From: a virus
Direction: 5' to 3' (one strand)
DNA: 64,000 nucleotides
IMG/VR virus record: IMGVR_UViG_3300010883_007299
Span: 1-64,000 of that record
Positions 2,590 through 14,716 of this stretch are shown piece after piece (position 1 is the first letter of the stretch; every line of letters starts with the position of its first letter). Position numbers and translations under genes: made by a program. A model generated the notes under the pieces. That model was not told the DNA's origin, did no database searches, and worked only from the letters and a program-made list of their open reading frames with translations.

Positions 2590-2883
2590 TTATGAATCAC
2601 AAGGCACCTCTACTGTACCTGCATCACCAAGAACATAACACTTACCACCACCCGGTGGGGCGGCAGCTGCGGTAGTTGTACTTGCCATGGTTGTGCATTT
2701 TGGTAGATCAGACTCTAATGCACAATCTAAAACATCTATTCTGGACTCTGATAACAAGGCTGCTTCTTGAGCCCTGACAACATAGCCTTGATACATAGGT
2801 AGTGATATCGTGGCAAGAATGCCCATAACAGCAACTACTATCATCAATTCAATTAAACTAAACCCACCATGGTTAGTTTTCAT
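2590..2883 (-). CDS. Type IV pilin-like protein with class-I prepilin leader
   Basis: This 97-residue protein has a short positive leader MKTNHGG. A type IV prepilin cleavage motif follows, G7|F8 with Glu at mature +5 ([20 protein letters not shown]), and the hydrophobic stretch makes the alpha-1 N helix. Residues 67-80 are a Thr/Ala/Pro/Gly linker. There are cysteines at 54, 63, 82 and 95, and the 82-95 pair could close a C-terminal D-loop disulfide. The mature part is about 90 residues, shorter than typical major pilins (130-160). AAGGAG lies eight bases before ATG. Prepilins are processed by host PilD and enter the inner membrane. Finding one between gp45 and gp44 is odd. Host-pilus interference or display is inference. 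Confidence 0.85.
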
Positions 2884-2896
2884 TACAAGACTCCTT

Positions 2897-3541
2897 CTAG
2901 TCTACTGTGGCCTCCATGGCAATCCAATAAGATGCCACTTTACCTACCCAATTAGAAATCTTAGCAGTGGTTGAAATTTGCACACTATAATCACCACGTA
3001 CCATTTTAAGATTCTCTGATTTGAAATGAGCTGTAAACTCTGTACCTGAATGAGTTCCTAAATCTTCAGTAAAATTATTAGACGTAGAATTTTTTAAATC
3101 CGTTGCTGTAATCTTACCATTACTTAAAACTACATCAGGTAATTGCATCACTGCTGATGCTTTCAATACTTTATCCAAAACTGTTTGTGAAAGATCAACT
3201 GTCACATCACACTCTGGCGGATTAAAAACTTCAGGTGGAGTTGTTAGAATGGAAGGATCAGAATACATATATCTAATCTTTGTACTACCACCATTAACTA
3301 ACAAGTACTTGTCATTATCAAAATTGAGTTCTGCATCTGATGCTAAGGACAACACACCTAGAAACTCATTCAAATCATAAATGCCAAACTCTGTTGGAAA
3401 CGACTCTGAAACATTTGCTTCAGCCAAAATATTTTTCATTGTTGAAATTGTGCGGAGTTGATTACCCTCTTTCACCATAATGTTTTGATTGATGGTGGAA
3501 AAATTCTTCAACACACTTACTGTTTCACTACTTAATCTCAT
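2897..3541 (-). CDS. 45: Sliding DNA clamp (gp45)
   Basis: This is the processivity clamp of the replisome and, in T4, the mobile enhancer of late transcription together with gp55 and gp33. The protein (214 residues; T4 has 228) starts [18 protein letters not shown], matching T4 gp45 MKLSKDTTALLKNFATIN. It keeps [20 protein letters not shown] and the C-terminal SYWIAMEA. I chose the ATG at 3541, which has GGAG seven bases upstream, over an in-frame ATG six codons earlier. It overlaps the preceding small gene by 14 bases. The gene heads the clamp-loader operon. Confidence 0.93.
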
Positions 3542-3812
3542 CTTCACTCTCCGTGTCATGTATATGTAACATGATTATACCATAATGTAAAATTTTCATA
3601 AGATCGACTCTACTCTTTCCGTTCTTACGCCCATATCGTTGAGCATACTTTAAAATATTGCCCATACAAAAACCTTCACCGTGACCACAATCTTCTATGA
3701 ACTGTGTAGCCTGATACTTACGTTGGGCATAATGCTTATCATAAGTACCATCCACATATTTTTGTAATTCACGGATAACTTCATCTTCACTAAATGCATA
3801 ATTAATTGTCAT
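3528..3812 (-). CDS. DUF3310-like small protein
   Basis: This 94-residue protein carries a central FCMGNILKYAQRYGRKNG...DLMKILHYGIIMLH pattern. It resembles DUF3310 (FC.GN.IKYL.R.G.K.....DL.KA..YL), a phage family sometimes labelled nucleotide-kinase-like without firm proof. It is the first gene of the gp45 operon. Its ATG lies about where transcription from the promoter at 3818-3846 should begin, so its mRNA may be leaderless. There is no Shine-Dalgarno sequence. Confidence 0.6.
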   Translation of the reverse strand: MTINYAFSEDEVIRELQKYVDGTYDKHYAQRKYQATQFIEDCGHGEGFCMGNILKYAQRYGRKNGKSRVDLMKILHYGIIMLHIHDTESEDEIK

Positions 3813-3817
3813 ACTAT

Positions 3818-3846
3818 ATTATCTCATAGTTTTAAACAAATGTCAA
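3818..3846 (-). promoter_or_regulatory. Sigma70-type early promoter of the gp45 operon
   Basis: On the minus strand TTGACA (3846-3841) is followed by 17 bases and GATAAT (3823-3818). The predicted start site is at about 3811, on the ATG of the next gene (3812). The -35 box and spacer length equal those of three other sites in the window. Confidence 0.75.
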
Positions 3847-3857
3847 GCGGAAAATGT

Positions 3858-3923
3858 GGGGTGAACAACCTTGGACTCTCTAGGTGTTTTGGTGTGGACC
3901 CTTGGTCGTATGGTTGTCACCCC
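3858..3923 (-). other. Structured 3' region after hsp20
   Basis: GGGGTGACAACC and GGTTGTTCACCCC (minus strand) can form a 12-bp stem with one bulge, enclosing 41 bases. It begins about 10 bases after the hsp20 stop, and no T-run follows. It may be a factor-dependent terminator or mRNA-stabilising structure. It lies just upstream of the gp45-operon promoter. Confidence 0.5.
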
Positions 3924-3932
3924 AACAAACAA

Positions 3933-4415
3933 TTACTGGATAGAAATTGTCCGAGGTTTCTTTTCCTCTGGAATGACTCGTTCTAAATGAACGGTGAGCA
4001 TACCATTATCCATCTTAGCATCTTGTACTACCACATCGTCAGCCAAAGTCCAACTTCGACTAAACTTACGGTGAGAAATACCACGATGTAAAAGTTCACC
4101 ATCATCATCGTTGCTCCGAATACGGAAGCCTGAGATATCCTCCGACTTCTTCTCAACACTACGAACAGTCAAAACACCATCAGCCACTTCAACTTCCAAA
4201 TCATCCTTAGATAACCCAGCAAGAGCCAACTCAATAACGAAATTGAAGTCATCGTCTTGACGGATGTTATAGGGTGGAAAGCCAGAGTTTGTCTGGTGTA
4301 GAACATAGTGGTCATGTAACCGATCAAACATACGGTCAAAGCCAACTGTGTAGGGTGATAATAGACTCCGATCAAACTGATCGAATATATTTGCGATTGC
4401 TCTAGTTGTTACCAT
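3933..4415 (-). CDS. hsp20: Hsp20 / IbpA-type small heat shock protein
   Basis: This 160-residue alpha-crystallin-domain chaperone has an IbpA-like GFPPYNIRQ entry near residue 45, and a crystallin core with LAGLSKDDLEVEVADGVLTV and an LLHRGIS..KFSRSW..A loop. It ends with an IXI-type tail, ISI, just before the stop. Such holdases are common in T4-like cyanophages and other marine myoviruses and are thought to protect virion assembly. The Shine-Dalgarno sequence AAAGGAGG is strong. Both a sigma70-type promoter and a TATAAATA late element lie upstream, suggesting expression early and late. Confidence 0.92.
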   Translation of the reverse strand: MVTTRAIANIFDQFDRSLLSPYTVGFDRMFDRLHDHYVLHQTNSGFPPYNIRQDDDFNFVIELALAGLSKDDLEVEVADGVLTVRSVEKKSEDISGFRIRSNDDDGELLHRGISHRKFSRSWTLADDVVVQDAKMDNGMLTVHLERVIPEEKKPRTISIQ

Positions 4416-4480
4416 TTTTAGGTCCTCCTTTTACTTCAAGCAAGGTTTAATGAAAGGCCCCAAAGGCACCTTTCTCCAAG

Positions 4481-4488
4481 TATTTATA
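4481..4488 (-). promoter_or_regulatory. Late promoter element TATAAATA upstream of hsp20
   Basis: TATAAATA on the minus strand is an exact match to the T4 late -10 consensus read by gp55. It sits directly downstream of the sigma70-type promoter at 4490-4518, so hsp20 has tandem early and late starts. Confidence 0.65.
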
Positions 4489-4489
4489 C

Positions 4490-4518
4490 AGCTTAACACA
4501 CTTTAGGTGGTTTGTCAA
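4490..4518 (-). promoter_or_regulatory. Sigma70-type early promoter of hsp20
   Basis: TTGACA (4518-4513), 17 bases, TAAGCT (4495-4490). The -35 box contains the stop codon of the upstream radical SAM gene. The spacer holds CACCTAAAGTG, the exact inverse of the element inside the 12266-12294 promoter, so it may be an operator. Confidence 0.75.
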
Positions 4519-5549
4519 CCCCCATAACTCTCCAATAACCAATTAGAAAATTGATTATTAATTAAATGATCTGCCTTATCATAATTCAAAATATCACTAG
4601 ACAACAAATTTAATTCCACTTTAAGAGTTTGTACAATATGTTTTAATTCATCCGTAGATAAATTCCAAATAGATAGATGTTCTGGATATCTAATGGTATT
4701 ATACCAAAGATCAACATTCTTTTCACCACACCACTTAACATAGTTAACCATTTCATCCCAATTATTCCTCATTGGATTCACCATAACACACAACCCAAAA
4801 GGAACTTCTTTCTTTCTATTTTCACTATAATTTTGTTTATTAATATACTCTAAAAAGATTTCAAAATTCTTCATCAACAAATCAAAATCACCATTGATTC
4901 TAATATCCTCATAGCGTTCTTTAATCAAACTATCAATACTAATATTTAAATATACGTTACAACTATCTAATAATTCTTTCACCCTATCATTATACACTGT
5001 ACCATTTGTGGCTATATTGATTTTTAAATCTGGTTTCAATATAGAAACTGTTTCACAAATCTCAAAAACTATCTTCTGTGCTAATGGTTCTCCACCATTA
5101 AATCTCAATTCTTCCAAATGTGGTATAAATTCTTCTAACTGTTTAACAAACGTATCATCATACATCATAGGCATTGGAGGCAATTTATCTCTATTCTTCC
5201 TTATACCGCTACTTAATTTTCCATTGCACATTATACATTCAAGGTTACATTGATTACTCAACTCCAACTCCATCATTGTTGGATACTTTGTAACAGAATA
5301 GGGTTCGTATGCTTTAGATAATGACCAAACATTATCATCAATATTTTTCTTACATATTCCACAAGGGCCTTCAAAAATATTATTAGATAAATCGTTTCGG
5401 AGTTTCTGGAACTTATCACCAAACCAAATATCACTAATAGAATTATCTTTACTCCATATCTCCTTCATATCCACAGTCAACCAACACGGTGCTACTGTAC
5501 CGGAGGTTGTGAAATACATATTATTAAATGGGGCTTTACAACTAGTCAT
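4515..5549 (-). CDS. Radical SAM protein with N-terminal SPASM-like domain
   Basis: This 344-residue protein has the radical SAM 4Fe-4S motif CNLECIMC (C101, C105, C108), the SAM-binding FNGGEP (150-155) and a TIM-barrel pattern INIATNG / LNISIDS. Before the core, residues 1-75 carry C4, C22, C63 and C66 in a CKAPFNN...G.V.PCW...GPCGIC pattern, which looks like a SPASM/twitch auxiliary-cluster domain placed N-terminally instead of C-terminally. SPASM enzymes modify peptides or proteins, but the substrate here is unknown. It overlaps the SPASM fragment upstream by eight bases and is the last gene of a long operon. Confidence 0.85.
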   Translation of the reverse strand: MTSCKAPFNNMYFTTSGTVAPCWLTVDMKEIWSKDNSISDIWFGDKFQKLRNDLSNNIFEGPCGICKKNIDDNVWSLSKAYEPYSVTKYPTMMELELSNQCNLECIMCNGKLSSGIRKNRDKLPPMPMMYDDTFVKQLEEFIPHLEELRFNGGEPLAQKIVFEICETVSILKPDLKINIATNGTVYNDRVKELLDSCNVYLNISIDSLIKERYEDIRINGDFDLLMKNFEIFLEYINKQNYSENRKKEVPFGLCVMVNPMRNNWDEMVNYVKWCGEKNVDLWYNTIRYPEHLSIWNLSTDELKHIVQTLKVELNLLSSDILNYDKADHLINNQFSNWLLESYGG

Positions 5550-5934
5550 CTTTTACTGTACAATTTGTTTTACAACACGGACTAATTTTTTCAGGATCAT
5601 CCCAAGACTCAGGTAAAGTTTTTGTATACCATTCGGAATTAATAATATCTTCTAAAGGTTTATTAAAAACATTATACTCATCTTTATTTTTATTATAATT
5701 CATCATCACTTTGTCTTTTGATGTATGATAAGCAGCTCTACCTATATCTACTAATTGATCTTCTATACCATAATGTTTTTTTGGTCCCCATTCTCCTTCT
5801 GGTACAAACACATTACCATAGAGATATAAATTATTTGCAAAATAACAACAAGGCAAAACTTGGCCATCTGGATTGACCAACAAACGCTTTGTAGTCATCC
5901 ACTCACACTTTATATTACAAGCATTCTTCTTCAA
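5542..5934 (-). CDS. Stand-alone SPASM-domain protein (probable second half of a split radical SAM/SPASM enzyme)
   Basis: This 130-residue protein has C10, the pair C29-C30 in LLVNPDGQVLPCC, a PLEDIINSEWY segment and a C-terminal CCKTNC (C120, C121, C125). This is the SPASM layout of auxiliary cluster ligands, with no radical SAM core. It starts with TTG inside the end of the preceding radical SAM gene, overlapping it by 20 bases in a different frame. Together the two are about the size of a normal SPASM enzyme. It is either a two-subunit enzyme or a frameshifted gene. Confidence 0.75.
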   Translation of the reverse strand: MKKNACNIKCEWMTTKRLLVNPDGQVLPCCYFANNLYLYGNVFVPEGEWGPKKHYGIEDQLVDIGRAAYHTSKDKVMMNYNKNKDEYNVFNKPLEDIINSEWYTKTLPESWDDPEKISPCCKTNCTVKDD

Positions 5935-6721
5935 TTTCTCTCATTTGATCCAAATTATTTAAATCAAAACTCCTACAATAAAAATTTTTACCTGGCAAAT
6001 TTCTAACAGGTTTCAAAGTTTGTTTACTATCTATACTAATATCAGCTCTAATTAAAACTTTCTTTTTATCATTAGCATCTATAAGTGTAAATTCTCTTTT
6101 ATCTGGATGCCACCTATCAGATAATACATACCGTATTTTTTTCGCACCCTTCTTCTTACATATCTTAGCAATATCATATAAACTATTTTGATTATGTTGA
6201 AAGACCACACAAAATACACTAGTTGTTGATTCTGTAAAGGATAAAACTTCCATATTATTTAATATTTTCTTTAGATTTGTATTTTGTCTATAATGTGAAT
6301 GTTGTTTTTGTGTTGTACCCTCTATATCAAATATAATTTCTAATCTCTTACCGCCAAGAACACCCAAATTCCACCACCACTCTGTATCTCTGATACTACC
6401 ATTAGTGTTGATTTGAATCCATGATGAAGAATTTTCTATGATATACTTAACAATATTAAATATATCCTTATTCATTATAGGATCACCCCACGTACCACAA
6501 AGATCAAATCTTTTGATATGTTGCATTGTCGTTTCGGGAAAAGCTTTTACAAATTCTTCAAGAGACCATTGTATAAGAGGAAGCCAATCTACTTTATCAA
6601 GACCATTAGGATTTGTTCTGTGACACTGAGGACACTTAGCATTACAGTGGGTCGATATATCGAGCCACATTATTAGATCACGTTCTCTATAAAGTTCTGT
6701 GTAATCTAAAAAAGTATCCAT
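5915..6721 (-). CDS. Radical SAM core protein (probable first half of a split radical SAM/SPASM enzyme)
   Basis: This 268-residue protein has CNAKCPQC (C26, C30, C33) within LDISTHCNAKCPQCHR, CGTWGDP (75-81) in the GGEP position, and INTNGSIRD. The C-terminal 60 residues lead into YCRSFDL and end just where a SPASM domain would begin. The product is undefined. The domain matches the radical SAM half of the peptide- or protein-modifying SPASM class. It overlaps the 127-residue gene upstream by 16 bases and the SPASM gene downstream by 20. Confidence 0.85.
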   Translation of the reverse strand: MDTFLDYTELYRERDLIMWLDISTHCNAKCPQCHRTNPNGLDKVDWLPLIQWSLEEFVKAFPETTMQHIKRFDLCGTWGDPIMNKDIFNIVKYIIENSSSWIQINTNGSIRDTEWWWNLGVLGGKRLEIIFDIEGTTQKQHSHYRQNTNLKKILNNMEVLSFTESTTSVFCVVFQHNQNSLYDIAKICKKKGAKKIRYVLSDRWHPDKREFTLIDANDKKKVLIRADISIDSKQTLKPVRNLPGKNFYCRSFDLNNLDQMREIEEECL

Positions 6722-7089
6722 GCCATTATCAACCCCAGGCCACCGTACATAAAAATTCTACCGATGTTGTTAAAGAAAAAAGAATATGCTCTTATAGCTT
6801 TAAGATTGCCAGCAGTATCATGTATCTTCATCGCCCTTTCTAATTCTGTTCTAACAACAAGTGGTAGTGGTCGCATATCAACAGTCCATTCATCCCATGT
6901 CTGAATATAATCTATATAAGATTCTTTATAGGCTGTCTTATAAACTCTCTCTGGATCCCAATCTTCAAGCCAAGCCAAAAGACTAATGAAATCGTGGTCT
7001 GCCATAGCTTTATAATTCGGTATCTTCTCCGGTAGCACATCAGACAATTTTACAGCGACTTGATGTAAAACAGATTTTCTATTTAACAC
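6706..7089 (-). CDS. Unknown protein with C-terminal membrane segment
   Basis: This 127-residue protein is not recognised. The N-terminal 80 residues are soluble, with several Trp/Asp pairs (LAWLEDWDPERV, TWDEWTVDMRPL). The last 20 residues, IFMYGGLGLIMAWILF, form one likely transmembrane helix with no charged tail. It overlaps deformylase by 11 bases and the radical SAM gene by 16, inside the recombination operon. Confidence 0.65.
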   Translation of the reverse strand: MLNRKSVLHQVAVKLSDVLPEKIPNYKAMADHDFISLLAWLEDWDPERVYKTAYKESYIDYIQTWDEWTVDMRPLPLVVRTELERAMKIHDTAGNLKAIRAYSFFFNNIGRIFMYGGLGLIMAWILF

Positions 7090-7654
7090 TCTGAATTCTC
7101 CTTGGTGTTTGAGCTTTTGCTAACAGTCTACGTTTCTTCTTAGCACGTTCCAAATGGAACCTATTGGCTTTTTTATCCATAGTTATACCCATTAGATGGT
7201 CATATTCGTGTTGAATAATTCTAGATGTAATGCCTTCAAATTTTTCATTAAAAGGATTACCCTTCTCATCTTCCCACTTCATAAAAATTGTAGTTGGTCG
7301 TTTAACTTCTACTGCTAGACCTGGAAAACTTAAACAACCCTCTACCATATATACTTCATCACCTTCATAATGTAGAATGTCTGGGTTGAAAAAGGTTTGT
7401 TGATATTCTTCTGTACCTTCAGTTGAAAAGTTACTCATACCAATACACATAACCCTAGTAGACAAACCAATTTGGTTTGCCGCCAATCCAATGGCGCCAC
7501 CACCAGCTCTAAGAAATTGCAAACTCTCACTGAGTTCTTCTGGGTCTACAATTGGATTTTCAAAATCAAATTTATCTGCAACCTTCTTTAATATAGGATC
7601 ATTTTCTTTTACTAAAGATTTAAGTCCACCAATATCTTCAACTAATTTTGTCAT
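7079..7654 (-). CDS. def: Peptide deformylase
   Basis: The enzyme removes the N-formyl group from nascent proteins. All three family motifs are present in the 191-residue product: GLAANQIG (56-63), EGCLS (105-109) and QHEYDH (148-153). The metal ligands are C107, H149 and H153, with catalytic E150. The length is normal. Marine T4-like phages often carry def as an auxiliary gene, which in cyanophages is thought to help maturation of host or phage proteins. It overlaps gp46 by ATGA, so it is translated with the recombination genes. Confidence 0.95.
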   Translation of the reverse strand: MTKLVEDIGGLKSLVKENDPILKKVADKFDFENPIVDPEELSESLQFLRAGGGAIGLAANQIGLSTRVMCIGMSNFSTEGTEEYQQTFFNPDILHYEGDEVYMVEGCLSFPGLAVEVKRPTTIFMKWEDEKGNPFNEKFEGITSRIIQHEYDHLMGITMDKKANRFHLERAKKKRRLLAKAQTPRRIQSVK

Positions 7655-9366
7655 GTTGTCATCCGTGTAAAATTCTGCATCTTTTCAAATCTAATTAAAT
7701 GGTCAAACTTATCTACATTCAAGTCGGACTTATGTGATATGATAAAAGTATTTTCATTACTTAAAGTATTTAGGATCTTCAAGAACTCATCTGTACCATT
7801 CACATCCAAACTGCTGTCAAATATCTCATCAAGTATTAATAGATTGGTGTTGGTACTATTCTTCATCTTGGCTATCTGTCTCCATGTAAAAAGAAGAGCC
7901 AAGTCTATTCGCATCTTTTCACCTTCACTAAAATTGGCATAACTAAACTCATCTCTATGTCTAGATTTAATCGTTTCATTAAACTGTTCATCTAATTCAA
8001 ACTTGACTTGAAACTCCAGCTGATTCAAAAAACTGTTTACCAACTTATTCATGATAGGTAGATACTTCTTAATGATCTTGGTTTTAATTCCAGAGTCCTG
8101 AAGCAACTGTTTCGCAATGTTGAGGTAGTTGGCTTGGTCTCCAATCTTTTCTTTTTCCTTCTGCAACTTCTTTAAATCATCACGGTACTCCAGTAACCGT
8201 GTCTTATCTTCCTCAAGAAAAGTTCCGGCCTTCTGTATATCATTTATCTGTCTCACTACCTGTTGATTAAAGTCCATAATAGATTCTATAGATGCTGTTT
8301 TCTTTGCAGTATCAACTTCATACTCCCTATTATCATTAGCGATCTTTTCATACAGACCAGTTCTAGCATCCATCTCTTTCAACTGTTCATCCAAACGCAC
8401 TAAAGAACAAGCACTGATAATCATTTTATCTGTACGTTCTTCTATTGCTGCACTCTTAAACTCCTCATCTATGTCTTGTTTACAAGTTGGACAGTTATCA
8501 TTATTTTGAAAAAACTCTATATCTTTTTTCGCTGTAGCCGATTTAAGGTCCATTTTATATTTAATATTATTCAGTTCAGACTTATCACCTTCCAATTTCT
8601 TTTGTTTGGGTAACACATCTGTTTCCCACTCTGTTATCAATCCTTTTAAAGAATTTATTTCTTTCTCCAACACAACCATATCATTTTGGTTTTTCTTCAC
8701 CTTCTTTTCTAGAGATTTAAGAGATGTCTTACTTGCATCTTTGGCTTCTATAATTTTATCCTCTTGCATTTGAACTTTATGATCGAGCATACTATTCTCA
8801 TAAGAAATATCTTTTAAACGTTCCTTATTATCCTTCGACCTCATTTTTAGAAGTACGTTCATCAGGGAGAATATCTTAATATCTAAAATCTCTTCCACCA
8901 CTTCACGCCGTGCAGAAGCTGTCAGTTGCATAAAAGGAATAAACGATGATGAACCCAATACCACCACTTGGGTAAACGACCGATGGTTTAATTTCAATAT
9001 GGTATTCTCTAGATGTTTCTGATAATCTCTAGCAGAAGCATCTTGATTTAAAAGTTTGTCATTAATATAAATCTCAAATTTGTTAGGTCTAATACTACGT
9101 CTTATTAAAAACTTCTTACGTCCTATAGTAAACTCAATTTCAACTTTACAATCCCGACCATTGACACTATTGACCAATTGATCCTTCTTAATACGTCTGA
9201 AAGGTTTACCAAAAAGTCCAAACGTCAATGCATCCAATACAGTAGACTTACCGCTACCATTGTCACCTATAACAAGAGTAGATGGATGTTTATTTAAATC
9301 TATTTGTATGGGTGTGTTGCCAGTTGATAAAAAGTTTTGCCAAGTTACGCTTTTAAATATTATCAT
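7651..9366 (-). CDS. 46: Recombination endonuclease subunit gp46 (Rad50/SbcC-like)
   Basis: This SMC-type ATPase partners gp47 to resect DNA ends for recombination-dependent replication. The 571-residue product has Walker A GDNGSGKS (34-41) and a coiled coil from about 170 to 430. The coiled coil is broken by a zinc hook CPTC (292-295). The C-terminal ABC signature is in NFSEGEKMRIDLALL, and Walker B is LLILDEIFD. The T4 protein is about 560 residues. The ATG overlaps the oxygenase stop (ATGA). Confidence 0.95.
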   Translation of the reverse strand: MIIFKSVTWQNFLSTGNTPIQIDLNKHPSTLVIGDNGSGKSTVLDALTFGLFGKPFRRIKKDQLVNSVNGRDCKVEIEFTIGRKKFLIRRSIRPNKFEIYINDKLLNQDASARDYQKHLENTILKLNHRSFTQVVVLGSSSFIPFMQLTASARREVVEEILDIKIFSLMNVLLKMRSKDNKERLKDISYENSMLDHKVQMQEDKIIEAKDASKTSLKSLEKKVKKNQNDMVVLEKEINSLKGLITEWETDVLPKQKKLEGDKSELNNIKYKMDLKSATAKKDIEFFQNNDNCPTCKQDIDEEFKSAAIEERTDKMIISACSLVRLDEQLKEMDARTGLYEKIANDNREYEVDTAKKTASIESIMDFNQQVVRQINDIQKAGTFLEEDKTRLLEYRDDLKKLQKEKEKIGDQANYLNIAKQLLQDSGIKTKIIKKYLPIMNKLVNSFLNQLEFQVKFELDEQFNETIKSRHRDEFSYANFSEGEKMRIDLALLFTWRQIAKMKNSTNTNLLILDEIFDSSLDVNGTDEFLKILNTLSNENTFIISHKSDLNVDKFDHLIRFEKMQNFTRMTT

Positions 9367-10154
9367 TCTAAATTTGGAGAACTATGCTCACTTGGATCAC
9401 CATCTATATTAACATCTATAACTATATTACCAGACAAGGAAATTCTTGTGACATCAGATTGAAAAGAATGTACAAAGTGTTGTAGGTGTGATGGAAAAAT
9501 AGCTACATCTCCACTATTAGGCATTATCCATGTATTGTGTACATTAAAATATTCTTGATGTCCGTATTGAAAAACTATTACTCCTGGACCCTGATGGTTA
9601 GATTTCCATTCATGTTCTTTATGTTCTTTATGAATTTCCTCAGGTATATCTAACCATATTACAAAAGATACATCCGAGTCATGGGTGTGTGGAGGATTCC
9701 ATTCATGTTTCTTTTGATAATTAACCCACAACGAATCTAAAGCCCAACCATATTGTATATCTTGATTTGGTTTAAGTTTAAATCCTTTTTCTTTAGCTTT
9801 CTTTACAAGCAACTGACTCAACATTTCCTGACGGGGAACATTCATTAAAAATGCATCCATCCAACGTCTGAATTTATCTCCAAACCAGTCCAAATGATCC
9901 TCTAAATTATATTCTTCATGAATATTGCCGGCCAATTGGTCTCTATAGTCTTTACTGGCAAGAATATTGCCATCTTCACCCAACCCTTCGGCTCTTGTCT
10001 TATCACTAATCGTTATTAATTCTTTAAGAAATTCTGGTGTCAACTGTGAATATATCATCCAAGGACCCCAATAGGTTGTTTGAAATTTTACTTCAAAGTC
10101 TTGATCTTCCGGTTGTGCTTTCATTCCACCGGTATTTACTTCTGTTCTTTTCAT
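9363..10154 (-). CDS. 2OG-Fe(II) oxygenase-like protein
   Basis: This 263-residue protein has a C-terminal double-stranded beta-helix signature. The iron-binding HTHDSD (156-161) follows W.PPH, then comes SGDVAIFPSHLQHFVHSF (214-231) with a distal His, probably H226, and R237 for 2-oxoglutarate. This matches putative 2OG-FeII_Oxy_5-type proteins, frequent in marine T4-like phages and of unknown substrate. It is inserted between gp47 and gp46, with 4-base overlaps on both sides, so expression is tied to the recombination nuclease. Confidence 0.8.
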   Translation of the reverse strand: MKRTEVNTGGMKAQPEDQDFEVKFQTTYWGPWMIYSQLTPEFLKELITISDKTRAEGLGEDGNILASKDYRDQLAGNIHEEYNLEDHLDWFGDKFRRWMDAFLMNVPRQEMLSQLLVKKAKEKGFKLKPNQDIQYGWALDSLWVNYQKKHEWNPPHTHDSDVSFVIWLDIPEEIHKEHKEHEWKSNHQGPGVIVFQYGHQEYFNVHNTWIMPNSGDVAIFPSHLQHFVHSFQSDVTRISLSGNIVIDVNIDGDPSEHSSPNLE

Positions 10155-11233
10155 TCTGATTCACTAGCCTCCACATATAAATTCTTTAACAGTTGTTTCA
10201 ATTTAGTTTTATTAAGAGCTGCACTATCAATTTCTTCTACATACCTATCTAACAATGTCATGGTATCTTCACCAACTTCCACAAGATCATCTGTAATAGC
10301 ACTAGGATCTAAATCTGAAAAATCTTCAACTATCTTTAGTTCATAAAAATTCCCTTCGCTATAACATCTATCAATAAATCTATCAAAGGTATAAAAATCT
10401 GTTTTCTGCACAACTATAATTTTAACATAACAATTTTCATATTCTGTTATATCATAATTCAACATCTCATCACAACTATGAGCGCCAACCAATGCATTGC
10501 CATCATCATAATAAATCTTTTTAAATAATTTATTAGGATTCTGATAAAATTCTAACTCTCTTGTTTCTGTATCAAATATATGAAATCCTTTCTTAGTGTT
10601 AAAATCATTCCAATATATTTCATACGGTGCACCCAGGTATCTAACATGGCCATCGTCCTGTTGTTGATGGTAGTGTCCAGAAAACACCCGTTCATATCTC
10701 TTGAACATTTCCCTATCCAACCCACCATCACAATAAAGACCAGGAGCCATTTCACTACCATTGATTTCCAAATGACCCATAACAATATCAGCTTTCGCTT
10801 TCTTTATTGTGTTCAAAGATGTAGTTAAATGTGCTGGTGCTATCCAAGGAACGAATAGTATATTACATCCACCTATCTCAACTAGTTCTGGAACATCCTC
10901 ATACAAGATTATATTATTATACTCTGCACAAGTTAATGATATAGAATTTACTTCATTATTATTCTTGTAATAACTATCATGGTTGCCAACCAACATATGT
11001 AATTTGAAATCCCTTGCGGGTTCAAAAAACATTTCTTTAGCTAGTTTAAGAGATAAGAAATTAGAATACTTGCGCCTATCAAAAGCATCACCCAAATGAA
11101 GTATCGTTGTAATGCCTTCCCTTGCAAGTATTGGGAAAAAAGTTCCTTCGTAGAATCTCCGCTGGAATTCGGAAAACGCCAAATTGTCATTCTTACCTCC
11201 GAAATGTGTATCGGTGATTATAGCAACCTTCAC
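10151..11233 (-). CDS. 47: Recombination endonuclease gp47 (Mre11/SbcD-like)
   Basis: This is the metallophosphoesterase nuclease partner of gp46. Motifs in the 360-residue product are D8-T-H10, HLGDAFDR with D49, GNHD (83-86) and a later FSGHYHQ. T4 gp47 has 339 residues. The start is GTG at 11233, with AGAGGA about ten bases ahead inside the end of gp55. It is part of the gp55-gp47-oxygenase-gp46-def run. Confidence 0.95.
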   Translation of the reverse strand: MKVAIITDTHFGGKNDNLAFSEFQRRFYEGTFFPILAREGITTILHLGDAFDRRKYSNFLSLKLAKEMFFEPARDFKLHMLVGNHDSYYKNNNEVNSISLTCAEYNNIILYEDVPELVEIGGCNILFVPWIAPAHLTTSLNTIKKAKADIVMGHLEINGSEMAPGLYCDGGLDREMFKRYERVFSGHYHQQQDDGHVRYLGAPYEIYWNDFNTKKGFHIFDTETRELEFYQNPNKLFKKIYYDDGNALVGAHSCDEMLNYDITEYENCYVKIIVVQKTDFYTFDRFIDRCYSEGNFYELKIVEDFSDLDPSAITDDLVEVGEDTMTLLDRYVEEIDSAALNKTKLKQLLKNLYVEASESE

Positions 11234-11236
11234 TAT

Positions 11237-11728
11237 TTAGTCTTCCTCTGAATGAAATGTATACTTGTCCAACATATCAACAAACTGTTGTTGGTACTTG
11301 CCGTCATCATCATGTGCCTGTAAAGCTATTCTCTGTTCGATGTCAGATTCTTTTAACATCTTTTCTTTAATAGCCTGTTGTTTCTTTTCTTTTGTAATAC
11401 GTCTGACAAAAGCAAAATAAATGATTTGTGTAAAATATGCAAATGGGTTTTTTGATTTTTCTGGATCAAATCTATCCATATACTGAAGGCAATTTTCTAT
11501 GCCATCTGAAATCATTTCTTCTCGATAAGTGTAGTTAATAAAATTTGGACGATACGACAGATGATTTGCAATCTTTAGAATACACTCTCCCAAATAATTG
11601 GTAATCTGCGGAGGTCCTTCACCAACCGCTTCAGCCTCAGCTGTCAGTTCTTTTCGTTCTACAAGAGCAGCGAAAAACAATTTATTATCTACATAGTGTA
11701 CCGGGTCCTTTTTTGAACGCTTAGCCAT
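11237..11728 (-). CDS. 55: Late-transcription sigma factor gp55
   Basis: This 163-residue protein resembles T4 gp55 (185 residues), the sigma-like subunit that directs host RNA polymerase to TATAAATA late promoters. The conserved block runs from YREEMISDGIENCLQYMDRF to NPFAYFTQIIYFAFVRRI, the region-2 type core. The ATG has GGAG eight bases ahead. Its presence agrees with the many TATAAATA elements in this window. gp33, the co-activator, is not recognised here. Confidence 0.92.
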   Translation of the reverse strand: MAKRSKKDPVHYVDNKLFFAALVERKELTAEAEAVGEGPPQITNYLGECILKIANHLSYRPNFINYTYREEMISDGIENCLQYMDRFDPEKSKNPFAYFTQIIYFAFVRRITKEKKQQAIKEKMLKESDIEQRIALQAHDDDGKYQQQFVDMLDKYTFHSEED

Positions 11729-11752
11729 CTTGGTCTCCTAACGGGAGGCCTA

Positions 11753-12229
11753 TCAGTTGTATGCTGGTGCAACATAATCTCCAAACAACCCAACAATAAC
11801 ATCTGCAGCATCTTCTAGATTATCTAGACGCCATGATGCATTATGTTTAATAAGTGGATGTTCTGTGAGATATTTGTCATCAGAAACAACTATCAATGGT
11901 TTTCTCAATCCGATTGCCCAACCGATTTCAATGACTGTACCATATGATGGTCGTCTATCGTTTAACTCTTGTGGGAGATAAGCCAAGACTAGATCACATG
12001 ACTCTGTATCTAACCAGTTCTTTGTGGCAATAGCACGTGGGTCTGACCACATTTTTGGAGTGGCGCCTTCATCTGTATACGTCAATCCCTTCTTTAAAGG
12101 TTCACACCTCAAAGGAGAAATGCCCACTATTCCATGTGGGAAAAATGTGCATACATGGTCACGCCATTCTGTTGCTTCTGTTTCAGTACAACCTGCAATA
12201 GGTCCTGCCAAATATATATACTTCTTCAT
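11753..12229 (-). CDS. Nucleoside 2-deoxyribosyltransferase-like protein
   Basis: This 158-residue protein begins with KYIYLAGPIAG (3-13). It has SCDLVLAYLP and YGTVIEIGWAIGLRKPLIVV (96-115), where E101 sits at the catalytic nucleophile position of the family. Members exchange or hydrolyse bases of deoxynucleosides or nucleotides, and in phages a nucleotide-salvage role is likely. AAGAAGG precedes the ATG, and a sigma70-type promoter lies 37 bases upstream. This appears to be the first gene of the operon that continues through gp55, gp47 and gp46. Confidence 0.85.
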   Translation of the reverse strand: MKKYIYLAGPIAGCTETEATEWRDHVCTFFPHGIVGISPLRCEPLKKGLTYTDEGATPKMWSDPRAIATKNWLDTESCDLVLAYLPQELNDRRPSYGTVIEIGWAIGLRKPLIVVSDDKYLTEHPLIKHNASWRLDNLEDAADVIVGLFGDYVAPAYN

Positions 12230-12265
12230 AGTTAAATGCCTTCTTTCTATTTTTAAGACACTATT

Positions 12266-12294
12266 AGCTTAACACACCTAAAGTGGAATGTCAA
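12266..12294 (-). promoter_or_regulatory. Sigma70-type early promoter of the gp55-gp47-gp46 operon
   Basis: TTGACA (12294-12289), 17 bases, TAAGCT (12271-12266), with a start site near 12259. The last bases before -10 (GTGTGT) and the boxes are identical to the hsp20 promoter. The spacer contains CACTTTAGGTG, the reverse complement of that promoter's CACCTAAAGTG. Confidence 0.78.
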
Positions 12295-12674
12295 GTCTTT
12301 TTCTTTACATCTTCTAGTCCCGTAACGGACCAATTTACGTTATTCCAATCACCATCTCTCACTACTGGAATTGCATGACATTTCATTCCTAGATGAGGAC
12401 TAATATCATTAATCAATATTCTACCACTATCAGCATGACCCATCAATAAAGTATCAAATGGTATACCCAATCTTCGGAGCTCTGATTCTGTTCTTTCTCT
12501 TACGGACTCTCGTCTACCTGTCATTAAGACTATCTTATGACCTTGAGTTTCCCATAGTCTCATTCTTTCTAATACACCAGGCAACAATTCATGATCTTTT
12601 TCCATTATGGCCTTATGACCACCACCCATATATTTTGTTAGAGTGCCGTCAATATCAATTATTAGGGTTTTCAA
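12291..12674 (-). CDS. HAD-family phosphatase
   Basis: This 127-residue protein has the HAD motif I IDIDGTLT (D7 nucleophile, D9), motif II in VLMTGRR, and a motif-III/IV acidic site in LINDIS. It lacks a kinase domain but resembles the 3'-phosphatase half of polynucleotide kinases and small phage HAD proteins. The substrate is unknown. The start is TTG at 12674 with AGAGGA nine bases upstream, and no better ATG exists. Its stop overlaps the -35 box of the following promoter. Confidence 0.82.
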   Translation of the reverse strand: MKTLIIDIDGTLTKYMGGGHKAIMEKDHELLPGVLERMRLWETQGHKIVLMTGRRESVRERTESELRRLGIPFDTLLMGHADSGRILINDISPHLGMKCHAIPVVRDGDWNNVNWSVTGLEDVKKKT

Positions 12675-12692
12675 TTTATTTCCTCTTGGGGG

Positions 12693-12721
12693 TTGACAAA
12701 TGGAGAAATCTATGATAAGCT
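12693..12721 (+). promoter_or_regulatory. Sigma70-type promoter facing antisense to the late gene at 12755-13252
   Basis: On the plus strand TTGACA (12693-12698), 17 bases, TAAGCT (12716-12721) have the same boxes and spacing as the minus-strand early promoters. No plus-strand gene follows. Transcription from about 12728 would enter the 3' end of the 165-residue gene. The palindrome TCCATTAATGGA, then CCTTTT, lies about 25-45 bases downstream and could end a short RNA. Confidence 0.6.
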
Positions 12722-12754
12722 AAACAGCATACCTCCGAAGGGAAAGAATATCCA

Positions 12755-13252
12755 TTAATGGAGTATCCTTTTGGACGGTATTAGTTCTTCAATCTGTTCT
12801 GGTATATCATCTTCTTCCTCTTCACCTTTCATTATCTGAGCTACCTTTTCCAAGTTCTCCTGTATCTCTAGCATTACATCACTTTCTTCCACATCTTTCA
12901 TATGTCCAGATTCCTGTCTAGCTTTCTTACTTAACATTTTATAATAAACAAGTACTTCTGGAGCTAAGTTACCAAATGACAATATACGATCTTTATATAT
13001 AACAAATGTGTCATCGTGGGTATAATTCATCCATCTATCTAAACCAGTATGTTCAACTACTCTTTTCTCTTTCTGTCGTTCATTAGGCATAACCACCTGA
13101 TGTTTAACAATAGTCATGGGCATTTCCACAACTAGAGCATCAGAGAATTCTCGAACAACTTTGCAGAAAACTTCATCACCACCCATAAGTTTTAACACTT
13201 TATAGTGTGATTCTGATAAAGCTTCTTGTTGGACTTCTTGAATGTCATCCAT
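12755..13252 (-). CDS. Unknown protein with Sm-like N-terminal pattern
   Basis: This 165-residue protein is not firmly recognised. Residues 18-50 (YKVLKLMGGDEVFCKVVREF...VVEMPMTI) read like the first strands of an Sm/LSm barrel, and a DRILSF segment near 108 could be a later strand. The C-terminal third is highly acidic (GEEEEDDIPEQIEE). It lies between UvsW and the HAD gene. AATAAATA is five bases before the ATG and there is no Shine-Dalgarno sequence, suggesting a leaderless late mRNA. Confidence 0.65.
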   Translation of the reverse strand: MDDIQEVQQEALSESHYKVLKLMGGDEVFCKVVREFSDALVVEMPMTIVKHQVVMPNERQKEKRVVEHTGLDRWMNYTHDDTFVIYKDRILSFGNLAPEVLVYYKMLSKKARQESGHMKDVEESDVMLEIQENLEKVAQIMKGEEEEDDIPEQIEELIPSKRILH

Positions 13253-13265: not shown

Positions 13266-14716
13266 TAACCTTTTAGTTTAACAGGTATAATATCATAATC
13301 AAACTCTTGTTCGTTATATATCTTTATCCGTTCTTTAAAATGTTTTAAAGTGTAATTCTCTCTATTAGCATAACATAAATCATCTACAATGTCAAATACA
13401 TATAATTGGTCTTTGTCATCAGCCACTCGTAAACCACGTCCTATAGATTGTAGTACTTTTATTTGAGATTTATATGGTGATGCAAATACAATATTATGGA
13501 GTCTCTTTATATTAATACCTTGTGAGAATACACCATATGATGCAACAACTATAACATTATCTTCCTTTTCAACAATAGACCTAATCTCTTCCCTTTCATC
13601 TGTAGGTGTTCCACCATACACAAAAAATACAGTACGGTCACTAATTTCTTTCAGTATCAGTGTTATAGCTTCAAGTTGTTTTATATACTGTGCTAGAATT
13701 AGAATGTTACCATCTGTTGTTGCGGCCAGTTTACTTATGAAAATATTTCTGGAAGGTAGTGTTGCTAGAAAATCCATCTCGGCCGGGTACTGGAGTTTTT
13801 GTCTATGTTCTTTAATGTGGTCTAATACTAAACATCTAATATGTAAGTTTGATAATTGTTTTTTAGCTATCAATTCAGAGGTAGTAGTAACTCGTTTGTG
13901 TTTGTAAAATAAACCTTCGAGCACCAATCTATGTACCTCAGTACCATCTAGTGTTCCTGTTAGACCTATACGATATTTACATTCATGCAATTTGGCCATT
14001 ATACCAGTTATTGATTTTGCTTTAGCTTGATGAGCCTCATCTACAAACACAGCTCCAAATTGACTGAAGTATTTTTTATCTAGTTTGTAGATTGATTGCC
14101 AAGTGGAGATGACCACCTCTCTAGGAGTATTCTTATCTGATCCGCCATAAAGTTTGTGGCAGTATTCGTCTGGGAACCATCCATAGTCCGCAAAGTCATT
14201 GAACATTTGCTCAACAAGACCGGTAGAAGGAACAATAATAAGTATTTTTTTATCATCAAACTTTTGTAAATAATATCTTACTAGGGCATATATAATGAAA
14301 GACTTACCAGAGCCGGTAGGGCTAAGAATAAGACCTCTATTATTTTCCAAAATATAGTGTATAGCATCTATCTGATAATCTCTTGTTCGTATTCCTTTTT
14401 CTAATTTCCGTACAAATTTTTTAGTTAAGTTCTTGTCTAATTTCCGAGGGGTAACTATTCCTTCTCCGTATTCGATTTTCTGTCCTTGTTCCGCAAGAAA
14501 TCTCCGTACATACGGTAGTAATCCCAAATATATTTTACCAGTAGCAGGACTGAATAAACGTACACGACCATCCCACACACGACTTCGTACCGATGGCATA
14601 AATCGTGAATTCGGAACTTCAAAGGTAAAGAATTCTGAGAGTTCTTTTCCAACAGACGGTTCACATTTAACTCTGAGATAAACTTCATTAAACTTTTCAA
14701 TTAAAACTGACATCAT
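13265..14716 (-). CDS. uvsW: UvsW RNA-DNA / recombination helicase
   Basis: This SF2 helicase unwinds R-loops, D-loops and branched DNA, shifting replication to the recombination mode. The 483-residue product has Walker A SPTGSGKS (132-139), DEAH (226-229) and TGT (253-255). Later it has GVFSQGINIKRLHNIVFASP and QSIGRGLR, the motif V/VI region. The N-terminal 100 residues form the substrate-binding part seen in T4 UvsW (about 500 residues). The ATG overlaps the uvsY stop (TAATG), so the two are coupled. Confidence 0.95.
   Translation of the reverse strand: MMSVLIEKFNEVYLRVKCEPSVGKELSEFFTFEVPNSRFMPSVRSRVWDGRVRLFSPATGKIYLGLLPYVRRFLAEQGQKIEYGEGIVTPRKLDKNLTKKFVRKLEKGIRTRDYQIDAIHYILENNRGLILSPTGSGKSFIIYALVRYYLQKFDDKKILIIVPSTGLVEQMFNDFADYGWFPDEYCHKLYGGSDKNTPREVVISTWQSIYKLDKKYFSQFGAVFVDEAHQAKAKSITGIMAKLHECKYRIGLTGTLDGTEVHRLVLEGLFYKHKRVTTTSELIAKKQLSNLHIRCLVLDHIKEHRQKLQYPAEMDFLATLPSRNIFISKLAATTDGNILILAQYIKQLEAITLILKEISDRTVFFVYGGTPTDEREEIRSIVEKEDNVIVVASYGVFSQGINIKRLHNIVFASPYKSQIKVLQSIGRGLRVADDKDQLYVFDIVDDLCYANRENYTLKHFKERIKIYNEQEFDYDIIPVKLKG

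What the first reader, a model, noticed from the sequence alone, without database searches (positions are those of the whole stretch)
3818..12721. Family of early promoters: TTGACA, exactly 17 bases, TAAGCT/GATAAT
Four sites (3818-3846, 4490-4518, 12266-12294 on minus; 12693-12721 on plus) share a perfect -35 and exact spacing, and three share the unusual -10 TAAGCT. The three minus-strand ones sit directly upstream of the gp45 operon, hsp20 and the gp55/47/46 operon. This separates an early host-sigma class from the TATAAATA late class.
Basis: seen in the sequence. Interest (0 to 1): 0.6.

Follow-up and report, generated by a model that had tools for sequence, protein, structure and literature searches.

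The report
Host-sigma promoter family in T4-like phage
The four sites are real and belong to a larger set of strong bacterial-type promoters that this marine T4-like virus and its relatives keep in front of the same replication and regulator genes: a known kind of switch with an unusual local spelling, plus one conserved member that fires the wrong way into a possible small RNA.

Summary
All four sites exist exactly as described. TTGACA-N17-TAAGCT occurs 3 times in the window against 0.02 expected. The window is part of a 96.5-kb T4-like marine phage contig, whose nearest named relatives are Melnitz (OM43 host) and Mosig (SAR11 host). Across the contig the family has seven TAAGCT members, TTGAC(A/G)-N17/18-TG(T/A)TAAGCT, against 0 in simulated sequence. 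All seven lie at gene boundaries. The fourth site (3818) is a sibling with GATAAT.

In 80 related contigs plus this one, TTGACA and TGnTAnnnT sit 17 bp apart 145 times; other spacings give 0-6. The promoters recur before the same genes while their spacers diverge: the gp55/47/46 operon, hsp20, the DUF3310-gp45 operon, and an oppositely directed site. This is a -35/TGn/-10 host-sigma70 class, as in T4 early promoters. "Early" is inferred; no expression data exist.

Corrections: spacing is 17 or 18; TAAGCT is specific to this lineage; hsp20 carries an early-type promoter fused to a late TATAAATA, so the classes overlap there; the gp45-operon mRNA is probably leaderless; the plus-strand site serves no annotated gene but is conserved and precedes a possible antisense hairpin RNA. 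New member of a known kind.

The parts
3818..3846 (-). Promoter of the DUF3310-gp45 operon: TTGACA-N17 (TGA) -GATAAT; ATG follows 5 nt after the -10, so the mRNA is predicted leaderless
   Evidence: sequence; orthologous sites before DUF3310 in relatives with ATG about 6 nt after the -10
4490..4518 (-). hsp20 promoter, early type: TTGACA-N17 (TGT) -TAAGCT
4481..4488 (-). hsp20 late-type promoter TATAAATA, one base downstream of TAAGCT
   Evidence: same fusion in L013, L045, L050, L053, L059, L072
12266..12294 (-). Promoter of the deoxyribosyltransferase-gp55-gp47-gp46 operon: TTGACA-N17 (TGT) -TAAGCT
   Evidence: 43 contigs including this one carry it at the same place
12693..12721 (+). Oppositely directed promoter TTGACA-N17 (TGA) -TAAGCT; no gene downstream on its strand
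   Evidence: 42 contigs including this one carry it at the same place
12729..12781 (+). Possible structured RNA start (hairpin) of the 12693+ transcript; its 3' half overlaps, antisense, the end of the Sm-like gene
   Evidence: MFE -21 kcal/mol, z -2.75; own arms pair better than swapped arms; no consensus structure from RNAalifold
3528..3812 (-). DUF3310 gene, first gene of the gp45 operon
   Evidence: PF11753 E 2.9e-11
2897..3559 (-). gp45 sliding clamp
   Evidence: phrog_223 E 3.9e-71
3933..4415 (-). hsp20
11753..12229 (-). nucleoside 2-deoxyribosyltransferase, first gene of the gp55 operon
11237..11728 (-). gp55 late sigma factor
   Evidence: phrog_234 E 3.2e-57
12755..13252 (-). Sm-like gene whose 3' end is antisense to the 12693+ transcript
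   Evidence: Sm_like, below cut-off; phrog_471
13367..13395 (-). Look-alike TTGACA-N17-TATGCT inside uvsW; explained by the protein sequence FDIVDDLCYAN, not counted as a promoter

Best explanation
The sites are sigma70-type promoters of the -35/TGn/-10 class, read by the host RNA polymerase with its housekeeping sigma factor, which a T4-like marine phage uses for non-structural (replication, recombination, regulator) genes before its own late sigma gp55 and clamp gp45 take over at TATAAATA. Shown here: the motif, its excess over chance, fixed spacing, position at gene boundaries, conservation before the same genes in relatives, and the separate TATAAATA sites before structural genes. Inferred: that host sigma reads them, that they are early, that the DUF3310-gp45 mRNA is leaderless, that hsp20 is switched from the early-type to the late start about 10 nt apart, and that the 12693+ member makes a short or antisense RNA. 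TAAGCT keeps the three -10 bases that matter most (T-12, A-11, T-7) and has TGn upstream, so it should work as a -10.
For: Exact sites; 3 against 0.02 expected in the window; 7 against 0 for the family and 7 of 7 at gene boundaries, p about 6e-9; spacing test in 81 contigs: 145 matches at 17 bp against 0, 0, 2, 2 and 0 at 14, 19, 13, 15 and 16 bp and 6 at 18 bp; 29 matches against 0 for the reversed pattern in 10 records; four orthologous promoters with conserved -35/-10 and diverged spacers; isolates Melnitz and Mosig have TTGAC- promoters before gp55; T4 early promoters are -35/TGn/-10 promoters (PMC2988021), and RB49, RB43 and Aeh1 prefer G at -33 (PMC1524935); cyanomyoviruses are thought to use unmodified host sigma70 for early genes (PMC2984593).
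Against: No transcript data. TAAGCT matches TATAAT at only 3 of 6 positions. No A-rich UP element is evident upstream. In T4 genes 45 and 55 have middle promoters (own knowledge), so 'early' may really mean early plus middle. Host unknown, so its sigma preference could not be checked. Only about 96 kb of the genome is held.
Confidence: 0.82

Rival explanations
1. The sites are host-sigma promoters but not an early class: they act throughout infection or as a MotA-independent middle class, with dual early/late sites such as hsp20 giving middle timing.
For: hsp20 has both elements, conserved in relatives; in RB49 and S-PM2 middle timing has been ascribed to overlapping early and late promoters (PMC2984593); the genes involved (gp45, gp55, gp46/47) are not immediate-early in T4 (own knowledge).
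Against: Only hsp20, not the gp45 or gp55 operons, carries a late box next to the early-type promoter.
Confidence: 0.35
2. TAAGCT is uniform because a phage factor or modified polymerase reads it, or because the promoters were copied within this genome, not because of host sigma alone.
For: 7 of 7 TGn promoters in this contig have TAAGCT, and 2 of 2 in L007, while relatives vary (TATAAT, TATTAT, TAGCAT, TACCCT and others); 92117 and 95964 also share flanks (GATAGGTGGTTGACGGG).
Against: Spacers and flanks of most members differ, which speaks against recent copying; the -35 and TGn are fully host-like; orthologous promoters with TATAAT exist in relatives. MotA and AsiA gave no match in the contig, but the tool's own control did not ring either, so this says nothing.
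Confidence: 0.2
3. The 12693+ site is not a promoter for an RNA; the conserved block is a 3' processing or termination element of the Sm-like/uvsW operon on the minus strand.
For: The hairpin spans the stop codon of the Sm-like gene, and part of its conservation (TTAATG..AGTAT..TTT) is the reverse complement of the coding end K..LH-stop.
Against: A full TTGACA-N17-TGATAAGCT on the plus strand, conserved in 42 contigs with diverged spacers, and TTGACA-N16-TATAAT at the same place in Mosig, is not needed for a 3' element; folding energy favours the plus strand.
Confidence: 0.25
4. The four matches are chance hits in an AT-rich genome.
For: A generic sigma70 scan finds no excess in the first 16 kb (60 found, 71 expected).
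Against: The specific motif is far above chance, fixed at 17 bp and conserved at orthologous places.
Confidence: 0.01

Closest known systems
T4 early promoters and those of RB49, RB43, Aeh1, 44RR
   Same: -35, TGn and -10 elements for host sigma70, placed before non-structural genes, with a separate TATAAATA late class (PMC2988021, PMC1524935)
   Different: -35 is a plain TTGACA, not T4's GTTTAC; -10 is uniformly TAAGCT in this lineage; no evident UP element; gp45 and gp55 operons carry this type
Early promoters of T4-like cyanophages S-PM2 and Syn9
   Same: host sigma70-like motifs before homologues of early genes, late (N/T)ATAAATA, some genes with both (PMC2984593)
   Different: here the motif is strict enough to be found by exact pattern, and orthologous conservation was measured
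Melnitz (OM43) and Mosig (SAR11) myophages
   Same: same operon order gp55-gp47-gp46 ... and, in Melnitz, hsp20 - DUF3310 - gp45; TTGAC promoters before gp55; Mosig also has an oppositely directed TTGACA promoter there; Melnitz paper reports 31 early and 15 late predicted promoters and no middle ones (PMC9004378)
   Different: their -10s are TATAAT-like and spacing is 16-17; no TAAGCT; Melnitz hsp20 has only the late box
Antisense RNA CfrI of cyanophage S-PM2
   Same: a T4-like phage RNA transcribed against a gene
   Different: different locus (psbA and a homing endonuclease), about 225 nt, experimentally seen (PMC2984593); the one proposed here is only predicted

Membership tests
T4-type early promoter (host sigma70, -35/TGn/-10) | -35 hexamer matched by sigma70 at 16-18 bp from the -10 | tested here: met
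   TTGAC[AG] at 17 or 18 bp in all members
T4-type early promoter (host sigma70, -35/TGn/-10) | TGn extended -10 | tested here: met
   TGT or TGA in all seven TAAGCT sites and TGA at 3818
T4-type early promoter (host sigma70, -35/TGn/-10) | -10 with T-12, A-11 and T-7 | tested here: met
   TAAGCT keeps all three; GATAAT at 3818 lacks T-12
T4-type early promoter (host sigma70, -35/TGn/-10) | A-rich UP element near -40 to -60 | tested here: inconclusive
   no obvious A tract in the flanks read; not scored
T4-type early promoter (host sigma70, -35/TGn/-10) | transcribed immediately after infection without phage protein synthesis | not testable with these tools
   no expression data
T4 middle promoter | MotA box at -30 in place of a -35 | tested here: not met
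   a -35 TTGAC[AG] is present in every member
T4 late promoter | TATAAATA at -13 to -6, no -35 | tested here: not met
   not in the family; but hsp20 has a separate TATAAATA one base downstream
PeSL mobile promoter cassette (Arbiol et al. 2010, recalled from memory) | early promoter plus stem-loop, dispersed within and between genomes | tested here: inconclusive
   stem-loops follow 4490, 12693 and contig 89377, but promoter positions are stable between relatives; the paper is not in the library

The most novel reading that the evidence does not exclude
A conserved, oppositely directed host-sigma promoter beside the gene-55 operon makes a short structured antisense RNA early in infection in a large clade of marine T4-like phages, regulating the Sm-like/uvsW operon end or acting in trans.
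Probability: 0.35. Interest if true: 0.55.

Novelty: new member of a known kind. Interest (0 to 1): 0.33.

Why it matters
Promoter prediction in pelagimyophages has been difficult: one study could not find middle or late promoters by existing methods (PMC7029224). A strict, conserved motif gives operon starts for a large clade of uncultured marine T4-like phages and a simple experiment in cultured relatives (Melnitz, Mosig). The conserved hsp20 early/late fusion, the predicted leaderless gp45 operon and the oppositely directed promoter are testable details, but the basic idea, host-sigma promoters before replication genes, is already known.

Tried and rejected
A shared operator in the spacers of 4490 and 12266 (CACCTAAAGTG and its reverse complement CACTTTAGGTG) looked striking, but it is not kept in hsp20 promoters of relatives; only a weaker ACTTTA is frequent in gp55-operon spacers. 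Rfam and tRNA searches found nothing. RNAalifold on the leader alignment gave no structure; the gp55-operon leader hairpin (AUGUCU/AGGCAU) is nearly invariant, so there is no covariation to support it. MotA and AsiA searches were uninformative. TATAAATA alone is not more frequent than chance in the window (13 against 9); only its position is telling.

Full report
Observation. The four sites are present letter for letter at the stated coordinates. The exact pattern TTGACA-N17-TAAGCT occurs 3 times in the window; 100 dinucleotide shuffles average 0.02 and none reach 3. A generic sigma70 scan shows no excess (60 found, 71 expected), so the signal lies in the specific motif.

The whole contig. The window is bases 1-64000 of a 96,473-base viral record. 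A scan of all of it finds seven members with TAAGCT: 4490-, 12266-, 12693+, 89377-, 92117-, 94762- and 95964-. All carry TGT or TGA before the -10; two have an 18-bp spacer and two have TTGACG. Of the eight TGnTAAGCT in 96.5 kb, seven have the -35. Simulated sequence gives 0 where 7 are seen, and all seven lie at gene boundaries although only 6.7% of 29-mers do. Site 3818 is the same -35/TGn type with GATAAT.

Relatives. gp47 recovered 80 related contigs. In these plus the present contig TTGACA and TGnTAnnnT are 17 bp apart 145 times (90 distinct sequences; 67 of them outside genes, in sequence that is 4.4% non-coding); other spacings from 13 to 21 give 0-6. The reversed pattern gives 0 against 29 in ten records. 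Of 22 distinct in-gene matches, 17 are set by conserved protein sequence in gp47 or UvsW, and three of the other five contain stops in the frame read, so they are probably not coding.

Orthologous promoters. (a) The deoxyribosyltransferase-gp55-gp47-gp46 operon has one in 43 contigs. (b) hsp20: in L013, L045, L050, L053, L059, L072 and here the -10 is followed at once by TATAAATA. (c) The DUF3310-gp45 operon: the start codon lies 5-6 nt after the -10, at the expected start of transcription, so the mRNA is predicted to be leaderless. (d) The oppositely directed site occurs in 42 contigs. The -35 and -10 are kept while most of the spacer changes, which is what promoter function predicts.

The TAAGCT spelling. 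It is uniform here (7 of 7) and in the close relative L007 (2 of 2), but relatives have TATAAT, TATTAT, TAGCAT, TACCCT and others at the same places. It keeps T-12, A-11 and T-7. It also occurs in unrelated phages. I treat it as a lineage-specific spelling, cause unknown.

Late class. TATAAATA is not over-represented in the window (13 against 9 expected), but most copies sit just upstream of genes on the coding strand in the structural region. hsp20 is the only gene in the contig with both kinds.

The plus-strand site. No annotated gene lies downstream on its strand. Transcription would start near 12728 and run antisense into the end of the Sm-like gene. The first 55 nt fold to -21 kcal/mol (z -2.75). 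Over 31 relatives the mean z is -1.0, against about 0 further downstream, and the two arms pair better with their own partner than with swapped ones (-11.3 against -9.4 kcal/mol, 0 of 300 permutations). However, part of the block is the reverse complement of coding sequence, RNAalifold found no common structure, and the permutation ignores relatedness. The promoter is well supported; the RNA is a suggestion.

Placement. The nearest named phages are Melnitz (OM43) and Mosig (SAR11), with gp23 identities of 75% and 72% and gp47 of 47% and 43%. Both keep the operon order; both have a TTGAC promoter before gp55, and Mosig has the oppositely directed TTGACA-N16-TATAAT too.

Literature. T4 early promoters are -35/TGn/-10 promoters (PMC2988021). 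RB49, RB43 and Aeh1 prefer G at -33 (PMC1524935). Cyanophages are thought to use host sigma70 for early genes and some genes have both early and late promoters (PMC2984593). Early and late promoters have been predicted in Melnitz (PMC9004378). The finding is therefore a new, well-supported member of a known kind. Timing and sigma dependence remain inferred.

Noticed in passing
G000 contig 89340-89405 (minus), outside the window: TTGACA-N17-TGTTAAGCT is followed at the predicted start by GGTCCTCAGTAAATAACATTATTGAGGACTTTTTTT, an intrinsic-terminator-like hairpin, then an ATG. A relative (L100) keeps the promoter and hairpin with a different spacer; it may be an attenuator.
   Followed up: partly
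12230-12265 (minus): Leader of the gp55 operon: AUGUCU...AAGGCAUUU is nearly invariant in 28 distinct relatives and could pair over the AAGG ribosome site.
   Followed up: partly
2590-2883 (minus): A type IV pilin-like protein with an N-terminal methylation motif (PF07963, E 3e-8) is encoded between gp45 and the clamp loader gene.
   Followed up: no
4515-6721 (minus): A radical SAM/SPASM gene (4515-5549) and two neighbouring genes that look related (5542-5934 and 5915-6721, CxxxCxxC-like motifs, not searched) stand between hsp20 and the deformylase region.
   Followed up: no
13367-13395 and gp47 about +829 in relatives: Near-perfect sigma70 look-alikes inside uvsW and gp47 are conserved because of protein sequence; a trap for promoter predictors.
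   Followed up: yes
L165 (contig IMGVR_UViG_3300029286_000024): An unrelated phage contig with more than 20 TTGACATT-N-TGnTAnnnT promoters in 13 kb, all on one strand before small genes.
   Followed up: no
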